A stretch of 64,000 nt of DNA from contig OZ026517.1 of NCBI GenBank assembly GCA_964019695.1, forward strand, positions 78,471,252-78,535,251, given 5' to 3'. Positions 10,731-63,356 of this stretch are shown piece by piece. A program made the translations under genes and the position numbers. This stretch comes from Loripinus fragilis (Eukaryota; Mollusca; Bivalvia; Lucinida; Lucinidae). Position 1 is the stretch's first letter; the number at the start of each line of letters is the position of its first letter. The notes beneath the pieces were generated by a model, which worked only from the letters and a program-made list of their open reading frames with translations, was not told the DNA's origin and ran no database searches.

Positions 10731-12308
10731 AGACGACCTCTTTCATCTGGACTATGTAGGTAGCCCCTTTCATTTGGTCTATAATGGCAACTCTTTTCAC
10801 CTGGACTATATAGACAACTCCTTTCACCTGGACTATATAGGTATCCCCTTTCACCTGGACTATATAGGTATCCCCTTTCACCTGGACTATATAGACAACC
10901 CCTTTCACCTGGACTATATAGACAACCCCTTTCACCTGGACTATATAGACAACCCCTTTCACCTGGACTATATAGGCAACTCTTTTCACCTGGACTATAT
11001 AGACAACTCCTTTCACCTGGACTATATAGACAACTCCTTTCACCTGGACTATATAGACAACTCCTTTCACCTGGACTATATAGACAACTCCTTTCACCTG
11101 GACTATATAGACAACTCCTTTCACCTGGACTATATAGACAACTCCTTTCACCTGGACTATATAGACAACTCCTTTCACCTGGACTATATAGACAACTCCT
11201 TTCACATGGGCTATTATAGACAACTCCTTTCACATGGGCTATTATAGACAACCCCTTTCACCTTGACTATATAGGACATTCCTTTCACCTGGACTATATA
11301 GACAACTCCTTTCACCTGGACTATATAGACAACTCCTTTCACCTGGACTATATAGACAATTCCTTTCACCTGGACTATATAGACAACTCCTTTCACCTGG
11401 ACTATATAGACAACTCCTTTCACCTGGACTATATAGACAACTCCTTTCACCTGGACTATATAGACAACTCCTTTCACCTGGACTATATAGACAACTCCTT
11501 TCACCTGGACTATATAGACAACTCCTTTCACCTTAACTATATAGACAACTCCTTTCACCTGGACTATATAGACAACTCCTTTCACATGGGCTTTTATAGA
11601 CAACCCCTTTCACCTTGACTATATAGGACATTCCTTTCACCTTGACTATATAGGACATTCCTTTCACCTGGACTATATAGACAACTCCTTTCACCTGGAC
11701 TATATAGACAACTCCTTTCACCTTAACTATATAGACAACTCCTTTCACATGGGCTATTATAGACAACTCCTTTCACATGGGCTATTATAGACAACCCCTT
11801 TCACCTTGACTATATAGGACATTCCTTTCACCTGGACTATATAGACAACTCCTTTCACCTTAACTATATAGACAACATCTTTCACATGGGCTATTATAGA
11901 CAACTCCTTTCACCTGGACTATATAGACAACCCCTTTCACATGGGCTATTATAGGCAACCCCTTTCACCTGGACTATATAGACAACTCCTTTCACATGGG
12001 CTATTACAGGCAACCCTCTTTACCTGAACTATATAGACAACCTTTTTTCATTGCCTATTTAGGCAAGTCCTTTCACCTATACAATATAGGCAACTTATTT
12101 TACTCGGGCTATTGTTTGCAACCCCTTACACCTTAACTATTTAGGCAATCCGTTCACCTGGACTATATAGGCAGCCCCTTTCACCTGTACTTTATAGGTA
12201 ACTCCTTTCACCTGGAAATTGGCTACTCCTTTCACCAAGACTATTTGGGCAACTCATTTCAGCCGTCTAATATAGGCAACTCATTTCATTTGGACTATTA
12301 GGCGATCA
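10731..12308. repeat. 27-bp minisatellite, ~58 copies
   Basis: The unit is GACAACTCCTTTCACCTGG followed by ACTATATA. It is near-perfect from ~10800 to ~11950 and decays toward 12300. The period is a multiple of three and the consensus lacks stops in several frames, so long chance frames run on both strands: + gives repeated DNSFHLDYI over 197 codons, and - gives VKGVVYIVQ or ERSCLYSPG. Blocks of variant units (ATGGGCTATTATAGACAACC then TTGACTATATAGGACATTC) recur at ~11235, ~11587 and ~11780, which shows segmental amplification. I see no promoter, splice site or signal peptide that would make it a gene. Confidence 0.9.
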
Positions 12309-17270: not shown

Positions 17271-18101
17271 GTAGATCACATACATTATGTAGCTTTGAGC
17301 AGACTTAAGACCTTTGATGGCCTATATATCACAGACTTAAACACAAACAAGATATCGATAAGTAAAGCTGTGAAAGCAGAAATGCAACATTTGAGAGAAT
17401 GCAAGACTGACATGACTCTGCAGTTTTTATATAATATGGCTGATGTTTTCAGATTAACCTTTTTAAATGCAAGGTCCCTACATAGGCATTTATTAGATGT
17501 GAAAAATGACTTCACTTTTCAAGTAGCAGAAGTAATTTGCTTTTGTGAAAACAGATTTGATGACAGAGACACTAGTGAAAGTACTTCTCTAAATGGTTTT
17601 CGCCAATATAGACAAGACTCTAAAGTTCATACAAACCAGAATCAACGGACACCATATGGAATGGCCTTGTATACCTCAGAGAAGTTACACATAGATCCCA
17701 GCTCTCTAACTAGTGACAATATTGAAATCATGCTATCAGAAATTAACAGAACTGAAATTAAAATCAACCTTGTCAACATATACAGTCCCCCCAAAACCAC
17801 AACAAAAACTCTAATTAAAGTGCTGACAAACATCCACCATACTTATTTGAACTCTGTGTTTAGTGTTATAATGGGTGATTTTAATATAGACATGAACAGT
17901 GACTCTCCTGGTGCAAAGCAGCTTGCTCAGCAAATGACTAATCTTGGATATCGTCAGTTGATTACTTCACCAACATGTGACACAGGCTCAATCATAGATC
18001 TCATTTTCACAAACTTCCCAGAGGATATGGAAGTGCGAGCTGGGACCTTGCCTGTGTATTACTCAGATCACATGATTATCTGGGCTGCTATCAAATCTTG
18101 A
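17271..18101 (+). CDS. Helitron-type helicase C-terminus plus EEP endonuclease (partial)
   Basis: The frame is open from about 17271 to the stop at 18099-18101. It begins VDHIHYVALSRLKTFDGLYI, which matches motif VI of Pif1-like Helitron helicases, so this is the 3' end of a rolling-circle transposon protein. An endonuclease/exonuclease/phosphatase domain follows. Counting from the TTG at 17295, its catalytic positions all look present: LNAR 57-60, the Glu of CFCEN at 85, VNIYSPP 159-165, GDFNID 194-199, Asp235 and SDH 257-259. The Rep and main helicase parts are missing upstream, replaced by the 150-bp array, so it is a truncated copy despite the intact frame. A LINE endonuclease is the alternative, but the helicase motif argues against that. 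Confidence 0.75.
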   Translation, partial: VDHIHYVALSRLKTFDGLYITDLNTNKISISKAVKAEMQHLRECKTDMTLQFLYNMADVFRLTFLNARSLHRHLLDVKNDFTFQVAEVICFCENRFDDRDTSESTSLNGFRQYRQDSKVHTNQNQRTPYGMALYTSEKLHIDPSSLTSDNIEIMLSEINRTEIKINLVNIYSPPKTTTKTLIKVLTNIHHTYLNSVFSVIMGDFNIDMNSDSPGAKQLAQQMTNLGYRQLITSPTCDTGSIIDLIFTNFPEDMEVRAGTLPVYYSDHMIIWAAIKS

Positions 18102-24429: not shown

Positions 24430-26509
24430 GTATGCCAACATCGAGCCAATCATTAATTCTGAAATACACGGATGTTGCAACGCCATTGTTCAGGCAACAA
24501 AGTTGGTATTCCCAACACACATGGACAGATCCATTAACCAGAGATGAACATCTACAAAATAGCTTTCTGTTTAGTAAACATAAACGGAGGAAAAAAGTTG
24601 TCCAGCCGCTGGCTAAGTCGCGCCCTCTTCGATTAGATTTCTCTTCACTACCAAATCTCCTCAAAATCAATGCCATTCGTGGTTCGTTTGTATATGACAA
24701 TGAATCTAATTCATTAAAATGGAAAATTTCCCCGGACAGTGTCTCTGATTATAGATATAGAAAAACAGACTGGTCTTTGACCCCATCTGTTCAGCAAAAT
24801 AAAAGTTACGTTGGTTCTTCCAAACAGCTTAGCACTTTAGATTTTATTCCATTACTGCGAAGAAAACGTGCAAACGAAAATTCAAACCTGCATACATCTG
24901 GAACATACAAACTTAAATCTAACACAAAGAAAGAACATCACACTTTCATGAAAATTGATGATGTGGATAATAGATTTAAACTGTCTGCAACAACGTCACC
25001 TGAAGGACAATATTTCCGTCTTCAACATACACCAACTTCTCCTGAAGGTATTTTTCATCTGGTTAAGTCTGACATCAGTGAGACAGGTAGTTTTAGATTG
25101 GAACGGACATGTGCAGATGAAGCTGGAGACTTTCGTATTGTACCCCCTGACGAGTATGAAACAGAATTCACCTTTCATCTTGCTGCATTGAATAATAGCA
25201 ATGAAGCTTTCCGCCTTCTACAGTCAGATGTAAATGACTATCAGACATTTCATCCCATCACAGCTACAGCACAGCCAAGTAAAGGATTTGTTCTAGCAGG
25301 GACAGATGAGCATTACAGCAAGCACGCTCTCTCTAATTCGAAAACAGCTTGGACTGATACATCTGAATACAATGCCATTTTAGACTTCATGGACAATGTA
25401 CATGGAAATCAACGCTTGTATGAGAACAAAGACAAAAATAACACTGAACATGTTGAATTAGGGAAAGCCAAACCTACTATGAGTTGCGGGCATTCAGAGG
25501 ACAACATAGTTGCTTATGTAAAAGAAACAGCAATGAAAAATCGTGAGTTAATAAAGATGGAGAATGTCAACGGTGACCTTAAATTAGTTAAAGTGCCAGC
25601 AAGGGATGCTCATTATTTCCGGCTTCATCGTGACCCAAACTCTTTAGATGGGGCTTTCCATCTCATTCAGGCTGACATAAATGAACCAGGGAGTTTTCGA
25701 TTAGAACGAACTGCGCCGTCTGAAGTAGGTGAATTCAGACTGGTGCCTGCTGATGGCCATGTATCCGATGACTTCAGACTAGTTACAACTGACTCTAGTA
25801 CATGTAGTTTTCGTTTACTACAATCTGATCCACTAGAAAATGAAACATATCACTTGGTTACATCTGCAAATCATGAAAATGGAGAATTTCGCCTGCTTCA
25901 AGCCGCATCTCGTGAGAAAAATAAATTTCTGAGTTATCAAGATGCAGGACCATCCCGAGCATATACTGTTCGTGAGAAAAATTCAAGAAAAGGGTATTTA
26001 AAAGATGTTTTAACAGACAAGACAGACCGCTATGATTATTTCCGAGATGTGGTACCACAATTTGAAGATAACGGTAATGCTTCACTGCTTCCGGATATAA
26101 CGTTGTACGATTCCAGGAAACATTTGCCTCTTCACCCACAAGGACAGTCTACCGACAGTAGAGATTATTCTGAAAAACGCCAGATGGAATTGATGTCGAG
26201 CGATAACGACATGGACGACTTCAGGCGAAAATACATGGACACCTATCAAGCTGCTTCCCCTGAAGTTTATAATAGGCTAGTTAGTCTTGGATTTAGACCA
26301 TCTCGTCAAACACTGGACGGTAGGCCTGCTAACAGGATGTCAAATGAGCATAGACAGACAGCTACTGCCTCTTTCAATCATCCTTCGAATGTCGACAGAT
26401 CTGGAGAAAGGCAGGACTTGCATGGAATCGATTGGCGAACACATACATCACAACAGTGGAGTCATATACCGAACACGTCAGAGGCAGATATACCTTTTAA
26501 TTTAGCAAG
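24430..26509 (+). CDS. gene 1, long exon: protein with 13-residue FRL repeats
   Basis: A single open frame of 2080 nt is bounded by TATCTTTTCAG|GT at the left and GCAAG|GTAAGTGC at the right. The first ATG (24432) gives 692 residues before the split codon. Coding may begin upstream, since the acceptor lies only 2 nt before that ATG. Residues 1-180 are polar with a basic KRRKK patch (51-55). Residues 183-290 and 383-498 each hold about nine tandem 13-residue units, for example FHLVKSDISETGS, FRLERTAPSEVGE and FRLLQSDPLENET; consensus F-[RH]-L-x3-D-x4-G-x. The blocks are homologous to each other, so a ~100-residue array was itself duplicated. Residues 500-692 are hydrophilic. No signal peptide or membrane segment is visible. 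I do not recognise the family. Periodic F/L spacing suggests short repeated beta strands (inference). Confidence 0.85.
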
Positions 26510-26699
26510 GTAAGTGCTGAAAGTTTTATTTCCTGCACATTCAGTGTTATTTAAGGTCATTCTTACTTAATACTGAAAAAAAATGTTAATCATTCGTGTA
26601 TTACCAGCTATATCTAAGGCAGATACTAGGGCAAACTGTACGCCTTCTCGCTAGAACTCCTTTAGTGACAGCTGTCCTCGTTTCTTTGTGGAATAGGTA

Positions 26700-46065: not shown

Positions 46066-46119
46066 TCAGTAGTATGGTTCTGTGTCTTCATCTGAGTCCT
46101 GTAGTCGTCGATTCAACAA
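46066..46119 (-). CDS. gene 2, last coding exon (peptide precursor C-terminus)
   Basis: On the minus strand, TTTCCTTTTTCAG is followed by a 54-nt segment that reads LLNRRLQDSDEDTEPYY and stops with TGA (46068-46066). The frame enters at phase 0, exactly what the upstream exon (ending ...SLLSDM at a codon boundary) needs. The acidic DSDEDTEPYY end fits the C-terminus of a secreted-peptide precursor. No obvious poly(A) signal close downstream. The exon is short, so the call rests on splice signals, phase and stop. Confidence 0.65.
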   Translation of the reverse strand: MLNRRLQDSDEDTEPYY

Positions 46120-47156
46120 CTGAAAAAGGAAAGAACAAATGTTACACGTGCAATGACGTCAATCATCAGCCTCGCTCAATCAATTACATGTACATCAACC
46201 ATGATCTAAAAGGAGTACGTGTACCTGTCATTCTTTGACCCTTATCCTGCCAACACTCTTTGTCCTGAAAAAAGCGCTTGCTGCATCAATTCACATACAC
46301 TACAAATTTCCCTTTACCGTTGAAGCAAACACAATGAACCAAGATCAGATAGTGTTTGTTATCAAGCAAAATCTGTATTGCGTACATGTAGCTGTCAACT
46401 AAGACTAGAGGGCTCCTTTTGGTCGCAGTCGCAGCCTTTACGTTACAATACTGTGTTTTGATGTAAGCAACACGCTGATTCTAAATATTCATCTACAAGA
46501 TCAATCAGACTGCTAGAATATTATGTATAATTCTGTCCCGCAATCCTGAATTCAGCCTTAGTTCTGACACTTTTCAACCATTTGGGCCGTATGCGAGTGT
46601 CGAAAGGTCTGACGAGACTGTTGTTGTGCAGGTTCGTCTTGGCATTCGCTAATTGCCTTTGTGGTAAGTAACAAAGTCACATGATAGCTCCACTAATACT
46701 TCAAACACAAAAATGTAAATTCCACCAACAATAAAATCCGACAATAACCATTTAAGAATGGAAATCTTCAAACGGGTACTTTGGCAAGGAGTGAAGGCCC
46801 AGATAAAATGCAGCATAAGGCGTCATTTCATCAGGATATGATATGTTTGCTCAGACAAAATTGATCTTCAGAAAACCTTTTCGGAAATTACAACCTATAT
46901 ACCTTAATATATATAATGGAACATCCTAATTTAACTGTAGCAAACTTTATAAAAAATGTCATTAGTCTTTAAAGTTCTAAAACCGTGAATCCAGCTCTGT
47001 TTTCCCAATATGATTGCCAAGCGGGACGGAACACAAAACAGTTCATCACAAAACTGGGACAGGACGCAAGCGAACTCTTTTGCCATAGGTCGAGATCAAA
47101 TATTTTCAGCTTGAATTTCCGATTATTTTCTTATCATAAACATTTCTTGTCTAAAC

Positions 47157-47220
47157 ATATGTTATGGATGCTCAAAAGAACCGTCTTCAAAAGACGGTTC
47201 TTTTAGTATCCATAACATAT
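47157..47220. repeat. near-perfect 64-bp palindrome
   Basis: ATATGTTATGGATGCTCAAA...CCGTCTT pairs with AAGACGGTTCTTTTAGTATC...ATAT, with about two mismatches. It is unrelated to the 15110 palindrome. Confidence 0.8.
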
Positions 47221-48224
47221 ACCGTCATGGAGAATTTAGAAATACACCCTCTCATCTGAAATTCTGTTTTGCGCTCTGATATTTGGTCAGTAGCCACAAT
47301 GCAAGCGTTTTAAAGTGCATGCCAAGCTAATGATGCCAATAATAGCGCTTTATTAATGAGTATTATAACAAAAAATATGGCATTTCATTGGGTTTTAGCG
47401 ATTTCAAGTTCCGCGATTCTTGCTGCAAGTCACAATGAAGCCAAGTTATAGGAATAAAAACTAGGTTTGCCATGAGCAAGCAACAAAAACGCATACATTT
47501 GTATCGGCTCCTTTCTAAAAAATATTAACCTATTTATGCCGAAAAGGAACGCACACTCCCAAATATATTATGTTGAAGGACATGAAGTAAGACGTCGTTA
47601 ATAAGGGTTGCAGGCCACACTTTGAAAACAATTCCGGATACTGAATATTTCTTTGATCATATCAAACAGTGCAGAGCCTGAATGGATCGAGTGTTCTTTT
47701 GCTTAGCAAAACAGTTAATGTTCGCTACCCTAGCTACAGTAGTATAACAGCAACACGTTCTGAATTATAAGGCTAGTCCCTGTATTTTTGCTCATTTTTA
47801 TAGCGCATTGACATGACGTAGAATTACTGGTTTATATTAGCAAATTTAGCAAATTTGTCGCCAAATTTTGATACAGCTATCTCTTAGAAAACAATGCATC
47901 TGAAAATATCGTTTGCTGAAGTCGTCTGCTTTATGTAAAAGACTAATGTCGTCATACAGCCAACCAGTGTGGACATAAAGAGAAGCAGTCTGATTCGGGT
48001 TCATAATGTTGGCTTCAAATACATTAAATGTACCAGCAGACGACACACAGCAGACGAGATAAAATAATGTATCACAATTTGAAATGCTAATCAACTGACT
48101 GTAGTGTACACGAACCATGGTGAATGTAAATTAATCAGTATCCAGTGCTTGGGTCTTTCAAGGCTCGTGCATTTTTAGTCTGACGAGCACAGGAAACGTG
48201 TATATATTTAAATTGCTCTAACGT

Positions 48225-48330
48225 GGTGGCCGAGTAGTACAAAATACGTTCTGGTAATCCAACAGCCTCACCCACAATGGTTCGAATCCAGGCGTTACCA
48301 ATGTTTTTTCTTTATATTTTTTTCTTTTTT
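48225..48330 (+). other. tRNA-like sequence with Pol III boxes
   Basis: GTGGTGGCCGAGTAGTAC resembles an A box, and GGTTCGAATCC at 48282-48292 is a perfect B box. T-runs start at 48303. A clean cloverleaf cannot be drawn (no clear anticodon stem), so this is more likely a tRNA-derived SINE or pseudogene than a working tRNA. Confidence 0.45.
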
Positions 48331-48612
48331 TTTTGTTATTTTCCCTGCCAATGTATTAGTATGCAAAATTTCATAAACATATATGGTGCGGTTCAAGAGT
48401 TATGAACATTTTCAGTAAAATACCTTGACCGGCCAAAATGATGCTCCGCAAAGCCTCGTCACCATTTTGCATACCAGTGGCTGGACAATGTTAAAATAAA
48501 TAAGTATGCAAAATTTGATCCAAATATATACCATGCGGTTCAAGAGTTATAAGCCGTCTGAAATGATGCTCAGCAAACCATAACCCATCAAAAAGCACAT
48601 AGTGATTATAGT

Positions 48613-48790
48613 ACAGACCCAAGGGTCGTGCAATATTGTACATACCCGAGGGTCGTGCAATTTTAATCTGACGAGCAAACCAAGGGTCGTGCAATATAGT
48701 GCACAACCAAGGACGGATGGACGGACGGACTCACATAATGATTATAGTATTTACCCAAGGGTCAAGCAATATTTGTCATGCTTTTTGCGG
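48613..48790 (+). repeat. short degenerate repeat, CCAAGGGTCGTGCAAT
   Basis: Four or five copies of ACCCAAGGGTCGTGCAATAT, irregularly spaced, with a GGACGGATGGACGGACGGAC run between them. Confidence 0.65.
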
Positions 48791-48965
48791 TTTGCGGTAA
48801 ATGCAGGTCAAATGCATTTTACACAGCATGATTGAAGATTTGATTAATTCTTCAAGATTTATGACTTCTATTTATCATCCACCTTGTAATCGAAATGAAG
48901 AAGTGATATCAAAGTGATACAACCAGCCTAAAAATACAACCGCTTCTGTGATGCATATGTAAATC

Positions 48966-49060
48966 ATTTCAATGTTGGAGGTCAGTTGTAAAGAGATCAA
49001 ATCACTCGCGCGCAGCGCGAGTGATTTATCTTCGTACAACTGACCGACAAACAGTGAATT
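48966..49060. repeat. hairpin element around GCGCGCAGCGCG
   Basis: GGTCAGTTGTAAAGAGATCA/AATCACTCGCGC is mirrored by GCGCGAGTGATTTATC...ACAACTGACC. A related GAGTGATTTATC half lies at ~28792. Confidence 0.65.
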
Positions 49061-50464
49061 ATTACTCAACAATTCACGCACTGGAGCTGATCTATTTCTT
49101 AAGTAAGTGAGTATGATCAGGAAATATCACAAGTATAACATAGGACAGTAACTGCTATATTATGCAAAGGAGAGTTATGGACGTTACACCGTCTAACGCC
49201 ATGAATGACGTCATTTTCCAGTGACGTCAGCTATCACACACTTTAGCAGTGAATTATTGCCCGATATATCACAGTTTGTTACCGTTACCTCTATATGTGT
49301 TAGAATATTTTTTTTATTTGTTAGTCCGGGGCATTTTCGATGAGAGGAGAGGCATCCTACTACCACTAGTTTCGCTGTCGGCACAATGATGGACCATTTT
49401 AAATGCTGGCTTGGTAGCTTTGTGATTTTTCAGGGGGAGGGGGTCCAGATCCCCTGCCCCCTCTGAATCCGCGCATGCAGTGTACACCATGAGCCAGAGG
49501 GAGTCAAATCTATTTTGACTCCAACGTAAGTTCTATTTTTGCGGCGCCTTTATTGTGTATCTATTGTCTGATGCTTGATGTCTTAATTGACAGGAACATA
49601 TTCATTTACAGGACGCAGTCTGATTAAATACAAACAAAGTAGGACAGTCCGTGTACTGTGTCAGTTTCATATTTATCAATATCCTTGCTACATGTAGTGA
49701 CGACTTTTGTCGTCTGCTGATAACCGTTGCAAGCAGCTTGGACCAGGAACAGGACCGACAGAACGTCGGTCTTGATCCGGATCCAAACTTTAAAATTCTG
49801 ATAAGAACTTTTTGATAAGAAATAATTTTGAAAAAAGTCAACACACAAAAACAAAACCATAAAAATTACCCACCATGCAAAGAGTTAAATGGATTGACGC
49901 CGTTTCATCGAAGCCATATTACTAGTAGTTGCCGCATTTTCAGGCCCTTTGGATAGTTACAGTCTCTAGTGTTTGTTGTCATCTAATGACTTTTTGTCAA
50001 ATTCAAATTTTCAAAAATAAACTTATTGGCCGGTCTAAAAAATTGGGAGGACCCTAGAGCATTGATTCTTTGAGTTTTTCTTGTCTGTATGCGTTTGTCA
50101 CCTGACACATAGGGATCATGTAACTGGCATCGTCGTCACCACCCACTTTTTCTTTGCGCCAAATAACTTTTAAAAAGGATGAACCGATTTCATCCAACTT
50201 TTGAAGAAAGTTAAATCATCATAAAATGCAGGTCAAAAACTAAGTGAGTATGATCAGGAAATACCTAAATCACACACTGCAGACCAACCCACGGCAAAGT
50301 GAGGAAGGGATCAGCGTATCGTTTCAACATCTTAATTTAGAGGCAAATCGTTTCAACACCGTTTAAGTAAGTTTTCCCACAGAGTTATACATGCAAACTC
50401 ATCAAATTATTCCTCGTCATATAGTTTAATATGTAAGCCCTTTACTTTGGGAAATTCAGTTATT

Positions 50465-50974
50465 TTAAACTTACCATATCAGAGAGTAGTGAACTCATTT
50501 AAACTTACCATATCAGAGAGTAGTGAACTCATTTAAACTTACCATATCAGAGAGTAGTGAACGCATTTAAACTTACCATATCAGAGAGTAGTGAACGCAT
50601 TTAAACTTACCATATCAGAGAGTAGTGAACGCATTTAAACTTACCATATCGGAGAGTAGTGAACTCATTTAAACTTACCATGTCAGAGAGTAGTGAACTC
50701 ATTTAAACTTACCATATCAGAGAGTAGTGAACGCATTTAAACTTACCATATCAGAGAGTAGTGAACTCATATAAACTTACCATGTCAGAGAGTAGTGAAC
50801 TCATTTAAACTTACCATATCAGAGAGTAGTGAACGCATTTAAACTTACCATATCAGAGAGTAGTGAACTCATTTAAACTACCCATATCAGAGAGTAGTGA
50901 ACTCATTTAAACTACCCATATCAGAGAGTAGTGAACTCATTTAAACTTACCATATCAGAGAGTAGTGAACTCAT
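50465..50974 (-). repeat. 15 x 34-bp tandem array of an exon/intron boundary
   Basis: Exactly 510 bp, 15 units of 34. On the minus strand each unit is ATGAGTTCACTACTCTCTGA + TATG | GTAAGTTTAA: the last 24 bases of gene 2's exon plus the first 10 of its intron. The first unit (50974-50941) is the real exon end. Thirteen units keep GTAAGTTT; two (donors near 50882 and 50916) read GGTAGTTT, and others vary at GAGTTC/GCGTTC or GATATG/GACATG. Using any donor but the first adds n x 34 nt, shifts the frame and, even in the first added unit, reads into TGA after VSLNEFTTL. The array therefore offers many competing 5' splice sites, or many U1 binding sites. Confidence 0.9.
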
Positions 50975-51183
50975 TTTTTCCAGCAGCCGTTGCCGGACGG
51001 AGTCGTCGTCGGATTCGGGATAAATGTTATCAGACTCTAATAAATCTGCTTGCTCGGGATAACTTGATATAACTTCTGTCACAGGCAAACGGTTTTTCAA
51101 TAATAATTGTCCCAGTATAAACTGTTTGTTTCTTTGAAGATTTTCTAAATTGTCAGTTGAAGGGCTGGATCTTTTACCATTTC
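50951..51183 (-). CDS. gene 2, middle exon of a secreted-peptide precursor
   Basis: Minus strand, 233 nt: acceptor TTCTTTTTTTTCAG|GA, donor GATATG|GTAAGTTT. Two bases finish a codon, then 77 codons are open: NGKRSSPSTDNLENLQRNKQ ... SDDDSVRQRLLEKMSSLLSDM in outline. The opening NGKR, joined to ...CYGG from the upstream exon, makes G-K-R: an amidation glycine plus a dibasic cleavage site. The rest is a hydrophilic spacer with an acidic SDDD patch and a leucine-rich end (RQRLLEKMSSLLSDM). The other two frames have early stops. The 3' border is the first unit of the 34-bp donor array. Confidence 0.8.
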
Positions 51184-58839: not shown

Positions 58840-59036
58840 TATAGTATTGCAATGTACAGGTTTTTACTTGTTTTAAAACATTTCAGTATAATGTAGGCCA
58901 AGCGCACTTTGACATATGTGCTTCTTGTGTGGGGTTTATGGTTTGTAGGTAAAATGAATGGATATATAAATTTATAATCATTTGCAGCAATCTTAACTTT
59001 TTCAAAAAAGCATATGAGTGAAATGTCAAAATGACA

Positions 59037-60345
59037 GACCACAGACCAACCTACAGCACGTGCGGAAGAAACAGGGAACACTAGGCCACAGACCAACCTA
59101 AAGCGCCGTGGGGGAATTAACACAGTACACTAGACCACAGACCAACCTACAGCACCACGAGGAAGAAACACAGAACACTAGACCACAGACCAACCTACAG
59201 CACTGTGAGGAAGAAACAGAGAACACTAGACCACAGACCGACCTACAGCACTGTGAGGAAGAAACAGAGAACACTAGACCACAGACCAACTTCAGCACCG
59301 TGAGGAAGAAACAGAGAACACTAGACCACAGACCAACCTACAGCACTGTGAGGAAGAAACAGAGAACACTAGACCACAGACCAACCTACAGCACTGTGAG
59401 GAAGAAACAGAGAACACTAGACCACAGACCGACCTACAGCACTGTGAGGAAGAAACACAGAACACTAGACCACAGACCAACCTACAGCACTGTGAGGAAG
59501 AAACACAGGACACTAGACCACAGACCAACCTTCAGCACTGTGAGGAAGAAACACAGAACACTAGACCACAGACCAACCTACAGCACCGTGAGGAAGAAAC
59601 AGAGAACACTAGACCACAGACCAACCTACAGCACTGTGAGGAAGAAACAGAGAACACTAGACCACAGACCAACCTACAGCACTGTGAGGAAGAAACAGAG
59701 AACACTAGACCACAGACCAACCTTCAGCACTATGAGGAAGAAACAGAGAACACTAGACCACAGACCAACCTACAGCACCGCGAGGAATAAACACAGAACA
59801 CTAGACCACAGACCAACCAACAGCACTGTGAGGAAGAAACAAAAAACACTAGACCACAGACCAACCTACAGCACATTGAGGAAGAAACACAGAACACTAG
59901 ACCACAGATCAACCTACAGCACATTGAGGAAGAAACACAGAACACTAGACCACTGACCAACCTACAGCACATTGAGGAAGAAACACAGAACACTAGACCA
60001 CATACCAAATTACAGCACCGTGAGGAAGAAACACAGAACACTAGATCACAGACCAACCTACAGTACAGCACCATGAGGAAGAAACACAGAAAACTAACAG
60101 ACACACAGCAGATATAACACGACTAAAATAAAGCAGCAATCTCTCTTTTCCTCAACGAGACGATCACAAAATTAGAAAGAACACCAAGTACTGAATAACA
60201 GAGCAAGGACCATACACCACCTCACAGATAATTAGAGAAACAATAAACAATGAATCAATAACAAAAGAACCATTACCTTAGAAGGAACTGTAGCCGGAGC
60301 CACCGGCGGTTGGGTAGAGGCCTAAATATTTCTTGCTGACCAAAT
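59037..60345 (+). repeat. 48-bp minisatellite grown inside a family A repeat
   Basis: About 22 units of ACCACAGACCAACCTACAGC + ACTGTGAGGAAGAAACAGAG + AACACTAG. The unit is the CAGACCAACCCATGGCACCG / TGAGGAAGAGC part of family A. After the array (60110-60345) the rest of family A continues in the normal order (CTCTCTTTTCCTCAACGAG, then CATTACCTTAGAAGGAACTG and the end). Since 48 is divisible by 3, long frames run on both strands (TRPQTNLQHCEEETEN or STVRKKQRTLDHRPTY on +); I do not count them as genes. Confidence 0.85.
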
Positions 60346-60425: not shown

Positions 60426-62278
60426 AGTTAGAAGGTAAAGATCAGGATTTTATACAATCAAGTACCACACCTGACCCAGGACACCACATGGGAAAGTGAC
60501 AAAACACAAAAAAATATCACAAACAAGAAGCCAAGAGGTTAGCCCTTTCCAAACAGGTGACCACAAGGTTGCAATGAACAGACAAGCAAGCATGACAAAC
60601 ACGAAATATAAATAACCAAAAATGATCCACAAAAGAAGCACTGCCTTGGAACGGTCAGTAAAAAAATGGAGAGCTTAATTGTTAACCTCATATCTGAAAA
60701 CTGTTAAAAACATGTTATCAAGTACTGTGAAAAGGTATATGAGAGATCTGGTAAAAATCTATTTTGGTCTATTAAAATTCAGGTGAAATTTTAGATAAAC
60801 TTAAAGCTAGAGATTTCAATGCGACCAGTTTGTCTACTTATGATTTTTCTACTCTTTACACTACTTTACCTCATAATTAAATTGAGGATAAACTTATTGA
60901 TCTTACTGAAAGAACCTTCAATAGAGAAGGCTCTTCTTACATGTACCTTGCCTGTAACGACAGAAACGCATTTATTTTACTTCGGAAACCCTAAAAATTA
61001 CCATGCATGGTCTTGTCAAAATGTATGTGATGCGCTGACCTTTTTGTTGGACAACATTTTTATTCGATTTGGCACCAAGCTGTATAGACAAGTAGTTGGG
61101 ATCCCCATGGGCACTAATTGTACCTCCCTAGTTGCCGATTTATTCCTGTTTTGATATGAGAGGGACTTTATGATGTTTCTTTCTGATGATAAGCAGGCTG
61201 ATGTTATAGATGCTTTTAACAATACATCCAGATATTTGGACGATATTTTAAACAATTGATAACGTTTATTTTGACAATATGGTTAGTAAAAAATATACCC
61301 TTCAGAGCTCAAACTTAATAACGCTAATACCTCTGATACCGAACCCGCGTTTTTCGATTTGCATTTGTCAATTTCTAATGATATTGTTTCTACCAACTAT
61401 CAGTATCAAAAACTTCGCAAAACCTTTTTTAAATTATATAGACGATACTATGATTTGATATCTAAATTCCAAATTAGACTTAAATCTCTCTTGCGCCAAG
61501 GACTTTCGGAACCTGAATTCTATGATGATTTGGTCAATAAATTGAAGAAAATGGTTGGCTCTAATAATTTCTCAGCGCAGTTCATCAAAATAATTTCCCA
61601 GTATAAAAAGATTGGCTATAGCATTAATGTATTGCAACAGACGGTATGTTTGGTAGTCAACCCAATCACGGTTGGCAACTTTGCTTTCCTCTTTAATTGC
61701 ACGCCGATTGGTCGCACTTCAGGCTCTTTGACGGTTCCGACTAAAAGACTTATCTATTGATGAGATGGTAGGGGCCTGATGCTTTGGCTGTTGCCAGGCC
61801 CACCAGGGTTTACATGCTAAGGGGTTTACATGCTAAATTTCTTTTGCTCCGGTATTCAGCTTTATTCACTGTTGAGTCATTATCTATGCTGTATCTCCTT
61901 TTTATATCTTGATTTATATGTTCTAGTAGATGATGCATTGATAAGTTAGGGGTCTTTCATGCAAACCAAAAATCTATGTGTCTTAATCCACATCTGAACT
62001 AAGGGTGATGTTTTGCGCGCCTTGAAACCGGTTTAAGCCCTCAAATAAAATATTTTTACTGACCGTTCCAAGGCGGTGCCTCTGTACAGGATCATTTATG
62101 TTATTTCTGTCTTGTTTTTGTTATGCTTTCATGCGTATCTGTTTATTGCTGCCTTGTGGTCGCTTGCTGGGAAAGGGCTGACATCTTGGCTCTCGTTTGT
62201 GATGTATATTTGTGAAGTTGTCACTTTCCCATTGGTATCCTGGGTCATATGTGGTGCTTGATTGTATCGATTCCTGAT
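60426..62278. repeat. family B sequence flanking a Penelope-like element in inverted orientation
   Basis: 60426-60662 (CACACCTGACCCAGGACACC, GGTTAGCCCTTTCC, ACTGCCTTGGAACGGTCAGT) is repeated in inverted orientation at 62047-62278 (ACTGACCGTTCCAAGGCGGT, GGGAAAGGGCTGACATC, TATCCTGGGTCATATGTGGT). The enclosed ~1.4 kb holds the reverse-transcriptase relic. A solo copy is at 10526-10727. Confidence 0.75.
60740..61760 (+). pseudogene. Penelope-like element reverse transcriptase, degraded
   Basis: Ordered motifs in shifting frames: STYDFSTLYTTLPHN (60832-60876), a stop, IEDKLIDLTERTFNREGSSY, VVGIPMGTNC then VADLFLF (61093-61152), YERDFM, and SRYLDDILN (61228-61254), the catalytic box. The C-terminal part (61359-61760) has YQKLRKTFFKLYRRYYDLIS and CLVVNPITV...FLFNCT. 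These match Penelope-like reverse transcriptases as I know them. Stops, frameshifts and a gap after LSISNDIVST, where about 50 residues appear missing, make it dead. No GIY-YIG endonuclease was seen. Confidence 0.75.
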
Positions 62279-63311: not shown

Positions 63312-63356
63312 CCCCATAGCACGCGTGGATTGCCCATCGACCAGAACATTTTCTGC
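63312..63356 (-). CDS. gene 2, peptide-encoding exon (Cys-loop, amidated neuropeptide)
   Basis: Minus strand, 45 nt: acceptor TTTTCTTTTCTTGCAG|GC, donor ATGGGG|GTAAGTG. In the only phase compatible with the next exon (2 + 14 codons + 1) it reads RKCSGRWAIHACYGG, and the splice completes NGKR. The result is a dibasic RK, a peptide with Cys at its positions 1 and 10 that could form a disulfide, an amidation Gly and KR. This layout is typical of a processed neuropeptide. It reminds me of the whitnin/SPTR (insect prohormone-3) type, but that is unverified memory. The signal-peptide exon is not in the window and should lie to the right. Confidence 0.75.

What the first reader, a model, noticed from the sequence alone, without database searches (positions are those of the whole stretch)
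50465..50974. A ladder of 15 tandem 5' splice sites at one exon end
The 34-bp unit is not random sequence: it spans the exon/intron border of gene 2 (24 exon bases + 10 intron bases), so each copy rebuilds ATG|GTAAGTTT. Thirteen of 15 donors are intact, although drift should have broken them if they were useless and old. Using donor 2 or later shifts frame (34 is not a multiple of 3) and brings in TGA at once. Copy number could therefore tune productive versus non-productive splicing of a peptide hormone gene. Alternatively the array is young and neutral, or acts as a U1-binding tract that suppresses premature polyadenylation in the intron.
Basis: partly seen in the sequence, partly recalled or inferred. 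Interest (0 to 1): 0.9.

Follow-up and report, generated by a model that had tools for sequence, protein, structure and literature searches.

The report
Splice-site minisatellite in bivalve hormone gene
In a bivalve gene for an excitatory neuropeptide, the 34 bases across one exon's end are repeated 15 times, giving 13 identical splice donors and two damaged ones; this is likely a young, near-neutral repeat in which the cell is predicted to use mainly the first donor, and human genes with a similar arrangement are already known.

Summary
The array is real: 15 copies of 34 bp (minus strand, 50974-50465), each spanning an exon end; 13 of 15 carry ATG|GTAAGT, copies 2 and 3 a damaged version. The gene is the bivalve excitatory peptide (GGN/EP, CCHamide ortholog) precursor. 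Donor 1 sits where transcript-like sequences of two relatives are spliced. Three relatives' genomic ORFs show no sign of the unit; one genome with a 99% identical exon has at least two copies. The frame-shift argument is beside the point: donors 2 to 15 all give one protein, since the same TGA lies 28 bases into the intron; it loses 17 C-terminal residues but keeps the hormone. Donor-bearing minisatellites are known in human IFI6 (1995) and ABCA7 (2018), where one-unit retention is about 2% and independent of array length. I read this as a new member of that kind: young, lineage-limited, probably near-neutral, donor 1 dominant. Regulation by copy number or a U1-binding role remains untested; no RNA of this species was found.

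The parts
63312..63356 (-). Exon coding the mature peptide, (G)RKCSGRWAIHACYG(G), 45 nt, between ...CTTGCAG and GTAAGTG; called exon 2 here
   Evidence: tblastn of P0003/P0005 to the window; coordinates and sites
50951..51183 (-). Exon 3 (233 nt): (G)NGKRSSP...LLEKMSSLLSDM, amidation/cleavage site and propeptide; its last 24 nt belong to array copy 1
50465..50974 (-). 15 x 34-bp minisatellite of donor sites; exon ends of copies 1-15 at 50951 down to 50475 in steps of 34
50941..50974 (-). Copy 1 with the ancestral donor (exon end 50951)
   Evidence: same border as in transcript-like relatives P0003 and P0005
50873..50940 (-). Copies 2 and 3 with damaged donors ATGGGTAGT (U1 duplex -6.0 against -8.8 kcal/mol for the other 13)
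50921..50923 (-). In-frame TGA (intron bases 28-30) that ends the protein if any of donors 2-15 is used
46120..50950 (-). Intron 3 (4831 nt if donor 1 is used); outside the array it holds no GTAAG (3.2 expected)
46066..46119 (-). Last coding exon, LLNRRLQDSDEDTEPYY*

Best explanation
This is a 15-copy, 34-bp minisatellite lying across the exon 3/intron 3 border of a bivalve excitatory-peptide (GGN/EP) precursor gene; it likely arose recently by tandem duplication at an AAA microhomology followed by slippage or unequal exchange, and it is probably near-neutral because splicing is predicted to use mainly the first donor. Shown: the array, its 13 strong and two weakened donors, the gene, the match of donor 1 to the border used in two relatives, no sign of the unit in three relatives' genomic ORFs, and the fact that donors 2-15 all encode one and the same truncated precursor that still holds the complete hormone. 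Inferred: exon definition favours donor 1 (233-nt exon; the next strong donor would make a 335-nt exon); a small share of transcripts would use later donors; those from donor 4 on would be open to nonsense-mediated decay if a 50-nt rule holds in bivalves; hormone output would change little with copy number.
For: Array anatomy. Spliced precursors P0003 and P0005 join ...SILSDL|LLSQRI and ...SILSDM|LLTRRL, while their close genomic counterparts P0004 and P0007 (1 and 6 residue differences in this exon, counted by eye) run on into intron (SDLVNK..., SDMVST...), placing the used donor at copy 1's position in two relatives. Of 5 genomic ORFs, 3 (P0004, P0007, P0013) show no sign of the unit after the border, P0002 (99% identical exon) has NEFTTL, i.e. 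at least 2 copies, and P0001 is ambiguous. Copies differ from consensus at 2.5% of bases, with no donor constraint seen. One truncated outcome for 14 donors, hormone intact. The unit junction TTTAAATGAG against the flanks AAAAAATGAG and TTTAAAATAAC shows the short homology. In human ABCA7, whose 25-bp VNTR starts with the exon 18 donor, one-unit retention is 2 +/- 1% and not affected by VNTR size (PMC5954066, section 21 read).
Against: No RNA from this species was seen, so dominance of donor 1 is not shown. In ABCA7 the stop-bearing forms rose substantially when decay was blocked with cycloheximide, so 2% understates the splicing share, and skipping of the next exon does grow with array length. 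Classical in-vitro work (Eperon and others; titles seen only in a reference list; content recalled) favours the intron-proximal site when U1 binds both, which would predict donor 15. The two broken donors are the two nearest donor 1, whose use would leave the stop 4 and 38 nt before the junction; by my own count a random neighbouring pair among copies 2-15 falls there once in 13, so this is a hint at most. The three relatives were judged from protein ORFs, without DNA; P0004's runs only 11 residues past the border.
Confidence: 0.68

Rival explanations
1. Copy-number rheostat: array length sets the share of transcripts that end at later donors, which are degraded or yield the truncated precursor, and so tunes peptide output.
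For: 13 equally strong donors; later donors all meet one TGA, and donors 4-15 leave it 72-446 nt before the junction, far enough for a 50-nt decay rule; in ABCA7, exon 19 skipping grows with VNTR size and stop-bearing forms rise when decay is blocked.
Against: No sign of constraint on donors; the truncated form keeps the hormone; ABCA7 one-unit retention does not vary with size; no sign of the unit in 3 of 5 relatives' genomic ORFs.
Confidence: 0.12
2. The most downstream strong donor is preferred, so the array mostly makes a 709-nt exon and the truncated precursor; the allele is mildly defective or alters the propeptide.
For: Donor 15 is as strong as donor 1 by U1 pairing; in-vitro preference for intron-proximal sites (recalled).
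Against: Exon definition with flanking introns of 12.1 and 4.8 kb favours short exons (inference); in ABCA7 the extra donor found lies one unit downstream and is a minor form.
Confidence: 0.1
3. U1-binding tract: the unused donors recruit U1 and protect the 4.8-kb intron from premature polyadenylation.
For: 13 strong U1 sites; no GTAAG elsewhere in the intron (0 seen, 3.2 expected, P = 0.04, one of five patterns counted).
Against: Intronic poly(A) hexamers are not in excess (AATAAA 3, expected 3.8; ATTAAA 2, expected 3.7); of 254 other GT sites in the intron, one is as strong by U1 energy and five by pair count; relatives show no sign of the unit.
Confidence: 0.05
4. Assembly artefact: the copy number is a collapsed or expanded read-error product.
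For: Tandem arrays are often mis-sized (general knowledge); raw reads were not available.
Against: Six distinct unit haplotypes in the order ABBACDACEFCCCAA; another genome also has at least two copies (P0002).
Confidence: 0.04

Closest known systems
Human IFI6 (6-16/G1P3) minisatellite (Turri et al. 1995, doi 10.1093/nar/23.11.1854; title seen in reference lists; paper not held)
   Same: A minisatellite that provides multiple splice donors at one exon end; two downstream repeat units serve as donors, giving three mRNA species (passage in PMC4526556)
   Different: Interferon-induced human gene with donor use shown in RNA; unit of about 12 bp (recalled). Here: bivalve neuropeptide gene, 34-bp unit, no RNA, and all later donors meet a stop
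Human ABCA7 intron 18 VNTR (PMC5954066)
   Same: 25-bp units start with the exon 18 donor GT; retention of one unit shifts frame and brings a stop; length varies between people (passages and section 21)
   Different: Its repeat begins at the GT, is C-rich and reaches 9.7 kb; here 24 of 34 unit bases are exon sequence and no population data exist
MIR137HG VNTR (PMC6692358)
   Same: VNTR length correlates with alternative donor use in the same transcript (passages)
   Different: The alternative donors lie within pre-miR-137 (passages), not in repeat units as here
Internal tandem repeats that alter human gene structure (PMC2812944)
   Same: Minisatellite expansion (30-bp units on average) changes exons and introns, in some cases activating cryptic splice sites (passages)
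   Different: Paralogs in human segmental duplications; passages name no ladder of donors
Excitatory peptide / GGNG / GGNamide precursors of molluscs and annelids, CCHamide orthologs (PMC6617912)
   Same: Two cysteines, C-terminal Asn followed by GKR, a single peptide copy after the signal peptide (passages)
   Different: Nothing seen in the peptide; only the exon 3 border is unusual

Membership tests
Donor-bearing minisatellite (IFI6/ABCA7 kind) | Tandem array spans or starts at a genuine exon donor | tested here: met
   Array 50974-50465; border at 50951 matches spliced relatives
Donor-bearing minisatellite (IFI6/ABCA7 kind) | Units carry usable-looking donors | tested here: met
   13 of 15 units ATG|GTAAGT, U1 duplex -8.8 kcal/mol; 2 of 15 weakened, -6.0
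Donor-bearing minisatellite (IFI6/ABCA7 kind) | Transcripts use more than one unit as donor | not testable with these tools
   No reads or transcripts of this species found; the transcript-like relatives P0003 and P0005 show the first border only
Donor-bearing minisatellite (IFI6/ABCA7 kind) | Copy number varies between individuals | tested here: inconclusive
   P0002's genome has at least 2 copies with a copy 2 unlike the window's; exact number and species unknown
EP/GGN (CCHamide-type) precursor | Two-cysteine peptide ending in Asn and GKR | tested here: met
   RKCSGRWAIHACYGGN-GKR across exons 2-3; C.GRWAIHACYGGNGKRS invariant in 13 of 13 aligned, window included
EP/GGN (CCHamide-type) precursor | Peptide directly follows a signal peptide | tested here: inconclusive
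   Signal exon not found in the window (tblastn); signal-like N termini in spliced relatives P0003 and P0005 (by eye)
Intron gain by tandem duplication | Duplicated segment brings a new donor and acceptor and turns coding sequence into an intron | not tested
   The intron itself is older than the array (border shared with relatives); acceptors within units were not scored

The most novel reading that the evidence does not exclude
The array is a two-state splicing switch of evolving length: 14 spare donors all funnel into one alternative prohormone with an identical hormone and a replaced C-terminal propeptide, and the two donors whose use would yield a decay-resistant message were disabled by selection, so repeat length sets how much message is withdrawn.
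Probability: 0.07. Interest if true: 0.75.

Novelty: new member of a known kind. Interest (0 to 1): 0.4.

Why it matters
It extends donor-bearing minisatellites from human genes (IFI6, ABCA7) to a mollusc neuropeptide gene. With 13 donors identical over nine bases on one pre-mRNA, at multiples of 34 nt, it is a natural test of how position alone decides which 5' splice site wins. Because all later donors give one protein, it also suggests how a gene can tolerate such an array.

Tried and rejected
Pfam (one weak hit below cut-off, DUF6014, E 0.1) and PDB scans of the propeptide gave nothing useful; the gene was identified through homologous precursors. Block duplication of three units (ACD/ACE, copies 4-9) looked suggestive, but lag-3 identity is not significant (4 of 12 pairs, P = 0.19). 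Selection on donors: rejected as evidence. Excess of intronic poly(A) signals: none. P0001 (ends SDMVSL*) cannot be assigned one or more copies: a single event explains either. A third protein search, for ORFs reading into the array, found only P0001 (1 of 1 candidate). In one search the printed stop-to-junction distances were counted from the stop's first base; one search gives the distances from its last base, used here. Prior-art searches: I saw the listed rows only (20 of 22, 25 of 71, 15 of 45, 6 of 6, 15 of 15, 4 of 4, 2 of 2 and 15 of 53 papers); none of those titles or abstract starts names a donor array in a mollusc, in this open-licence library. One search, on decay rules with the word oyster, listed 10 of 479 papers, none on mollusc decay by title.

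Full report
OBSERVATION. Tandem Repeats Finder reports 50464-50976, period 34, 15.1 copies, 96% matches. On the minus strand the 15 units start at 50974 and end at 50465; each is 24 exon bases plus 10 intron bases. Thirteen of 15 carry ATG|GTAAGT; copies 2 and 3 carry ATGGGTAGT. U1 pairing energy is -8.8 kcal/mol for the 13 and -6.0 for the two. BLASTN finds no other full copy of the unit in the window.

THE GENE. A protein search with the joined exon 3 and last exon (94 aa) gave 5 proteins among 13 candidates, and a second search with one of them (P0003) gave 17 among 44, those 5 included. Of the 17, 12 are precursors that start with a signal-like stretch (P0003, P0005, P0006, P0008-P0012, P0014-P0017; named sources are Ruditapes philippinarum, Mactra antiquata, Potamilus streckersoni and Mytilus edulis) and 5 are genomic ORFs of this exon that run into the intron (P0001, P0002, P0004, P0007, P0013). 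The 12 precursors carry C(S/R)GRWAIHACYGGNGKRS, the GGN/excitatory peptide of trochozoans, ortholog of arthropod CCHamide, usually one copy directly after the signal peptide (PMC6617912, passages). In the window: exon 2 at 63356-63312, exon 3 at 51183-50951 and the last coding exon at 46119-46066; together they read RKCSGRWAIHACYGGNGKR...SSLLSDM|LLNRRLQDSDEDTEPYY*. The signal-peptide exon was not found in the window.

THE BORDER. P0003 and P0005 come from short contigs (longest 1613 and 947 bases) and are uninterrupted over the introns, so they are transcript-like (inference). P0003 reads SILSDL|LLSQRI and P0005 SILSDM|LLTRRL, while their genomic counterparts P0004 and P0007 read SDLVNKQ... 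and SDMVSTF.... The border used in these relatives is therefore that of copy 1 (50951). After the border, P0004, P0007 and P0013 show no sign of the window's unit; only their protein letters were available, and P0004 runs just 11 residues on. P0002, 99% identical in exon 3, reads SDMVSLNEFTTLCYGKLK*, which fits at least two copies (no one-copy solution with up to two events was found) and a copy 2 unlike the window's; P0001 reads SDMVSL*, which fits one or more copies. So the array looks lineage-limited, and its content differs between closely similar genomes; whether these are the same species is unknown.

IS IT KEPT BY SELECTION? Mean divergence from consensus is 2.5%. Six columns vary, two of them in the 9-base donor (P of two or fewer = 0.83). 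Diversity is 0.055 in the donor and 0.040 elsewhere; among 34 circular windows of nine columns, 20 are less variable than the donor window and 4, itself included, equal it. From the divergence of the other columns, 12.97 intact GTAAGT and 12.05 intact nine-base donors are expected; 13 and 13 are seen. Counting the two linked changes as one, there are about five mutations; even none in the donor would have P = 0.19. The intact donors are thus no evidence for function, and none against it.

WHAT THE DONORS WOULD DO. Joining each of the 15 exon ends to the last exon gives two proteins only: donor 1 the full precursor, donors 2-15 one truncated precursor ending SDMVSLNEFTTL. The TGA is read in the exon's own frame at intron bases 28-30, before donor 2, so unit length modulo 3 has no bearing. 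The hormone is retained; lost is LLNRRLQDSDEDTEPYY. The stop lies 4 and 38 nt before the junction for donors 2 and 3 and 72-446 nt for donors 4-15; under a 50-nt rule (recalled from mammals; not known to me for molluscs) only the latter would be decayed. The two damaged donors are exactly donors 2 and 3. One mutation copied to its neighbour could land there by chance about once in 13 (own count), so I note it without building on it.

MECHANISM. The unit junction TTTAAATGAG shares AAA with both flanks (AAAAAATGAG, TTTAAAATAAC), as expected for a microhomology-mediated tandem duplication, then slippage or unequal exchange (inference). Donor 1 makes a 233-nt exon and the next strong donor, number 4, a 335-nt exon; exon definition should favour donor 1 (inference). 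The best analogue read, human ABCA7 (25-bp VNTR starting at the exon 18 donor), shows one-unit retention at 2 +/- 1%, not affected by VNTR size, while skipping of the next exon grows with size; stop-bearing forms rose when decay was blocked, so 2% is a level after decay (PMC5954066, section 21). IFI6 uses two downstream repeat units as donors and makes three mRNA species (PMC4526556, passage). The opposite in-vitro preference for intron-proximal donors is recalled and stands against me.

U1 TRACT. Outside the array the intron has no GTAAG (3.2 expected, P = 0.04, one of five patterns counted; GTAAGT 0 against 0.9 and GGTAAG 0 against 0.6 are unremarkable), but poly(A) hexamers are at chance level (AATAAA 3 against 3.8, ATTAAA 2 against 3.7). 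Of 254 other GT sites in the intron, one equals or exceeds the array donors by U1 energy and five by pair count.

NOVELTY. Donor-bearing minisatellites have been in print since 1995 (IFI6; title seen). A mollusc neuropeptide gene with 15 units is, as far as my listings show, a new member: eight searches of the open-licence library (listed rows only) named no such array in a mollusc.

LIMITS. No RNA and no reads of this species, and no DNA of the nearest genomes; the window's own assembly could not be searched.

Noticed in passing
59036-60096: 48-bp x 22 minisatellite inside intron 2 of the same EP gene; single look-alike stretches seen by eye near 50270-50310 and 53520.
   Followed up: no
10736-12303: 27-bp x 58 array, partly open on + as a repeated FHLDYI(D/G)N(S/P) peptide.
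   Followed up: no
24432-26513: 693-aa + strand ORF with internal FRLLQSD/FRLERT-type repeats.
   Followed up: no
17295-18101 and 60819-61760: ORFs that look like pieces of retroelement endonuclease or reverse transcriptase (by eye, recalled motifs).
   Followed up: no
46120-50464: Intron 3 outside the array has no GTAAG (3.2 expected, P = 0.04).
   Followed up: partly
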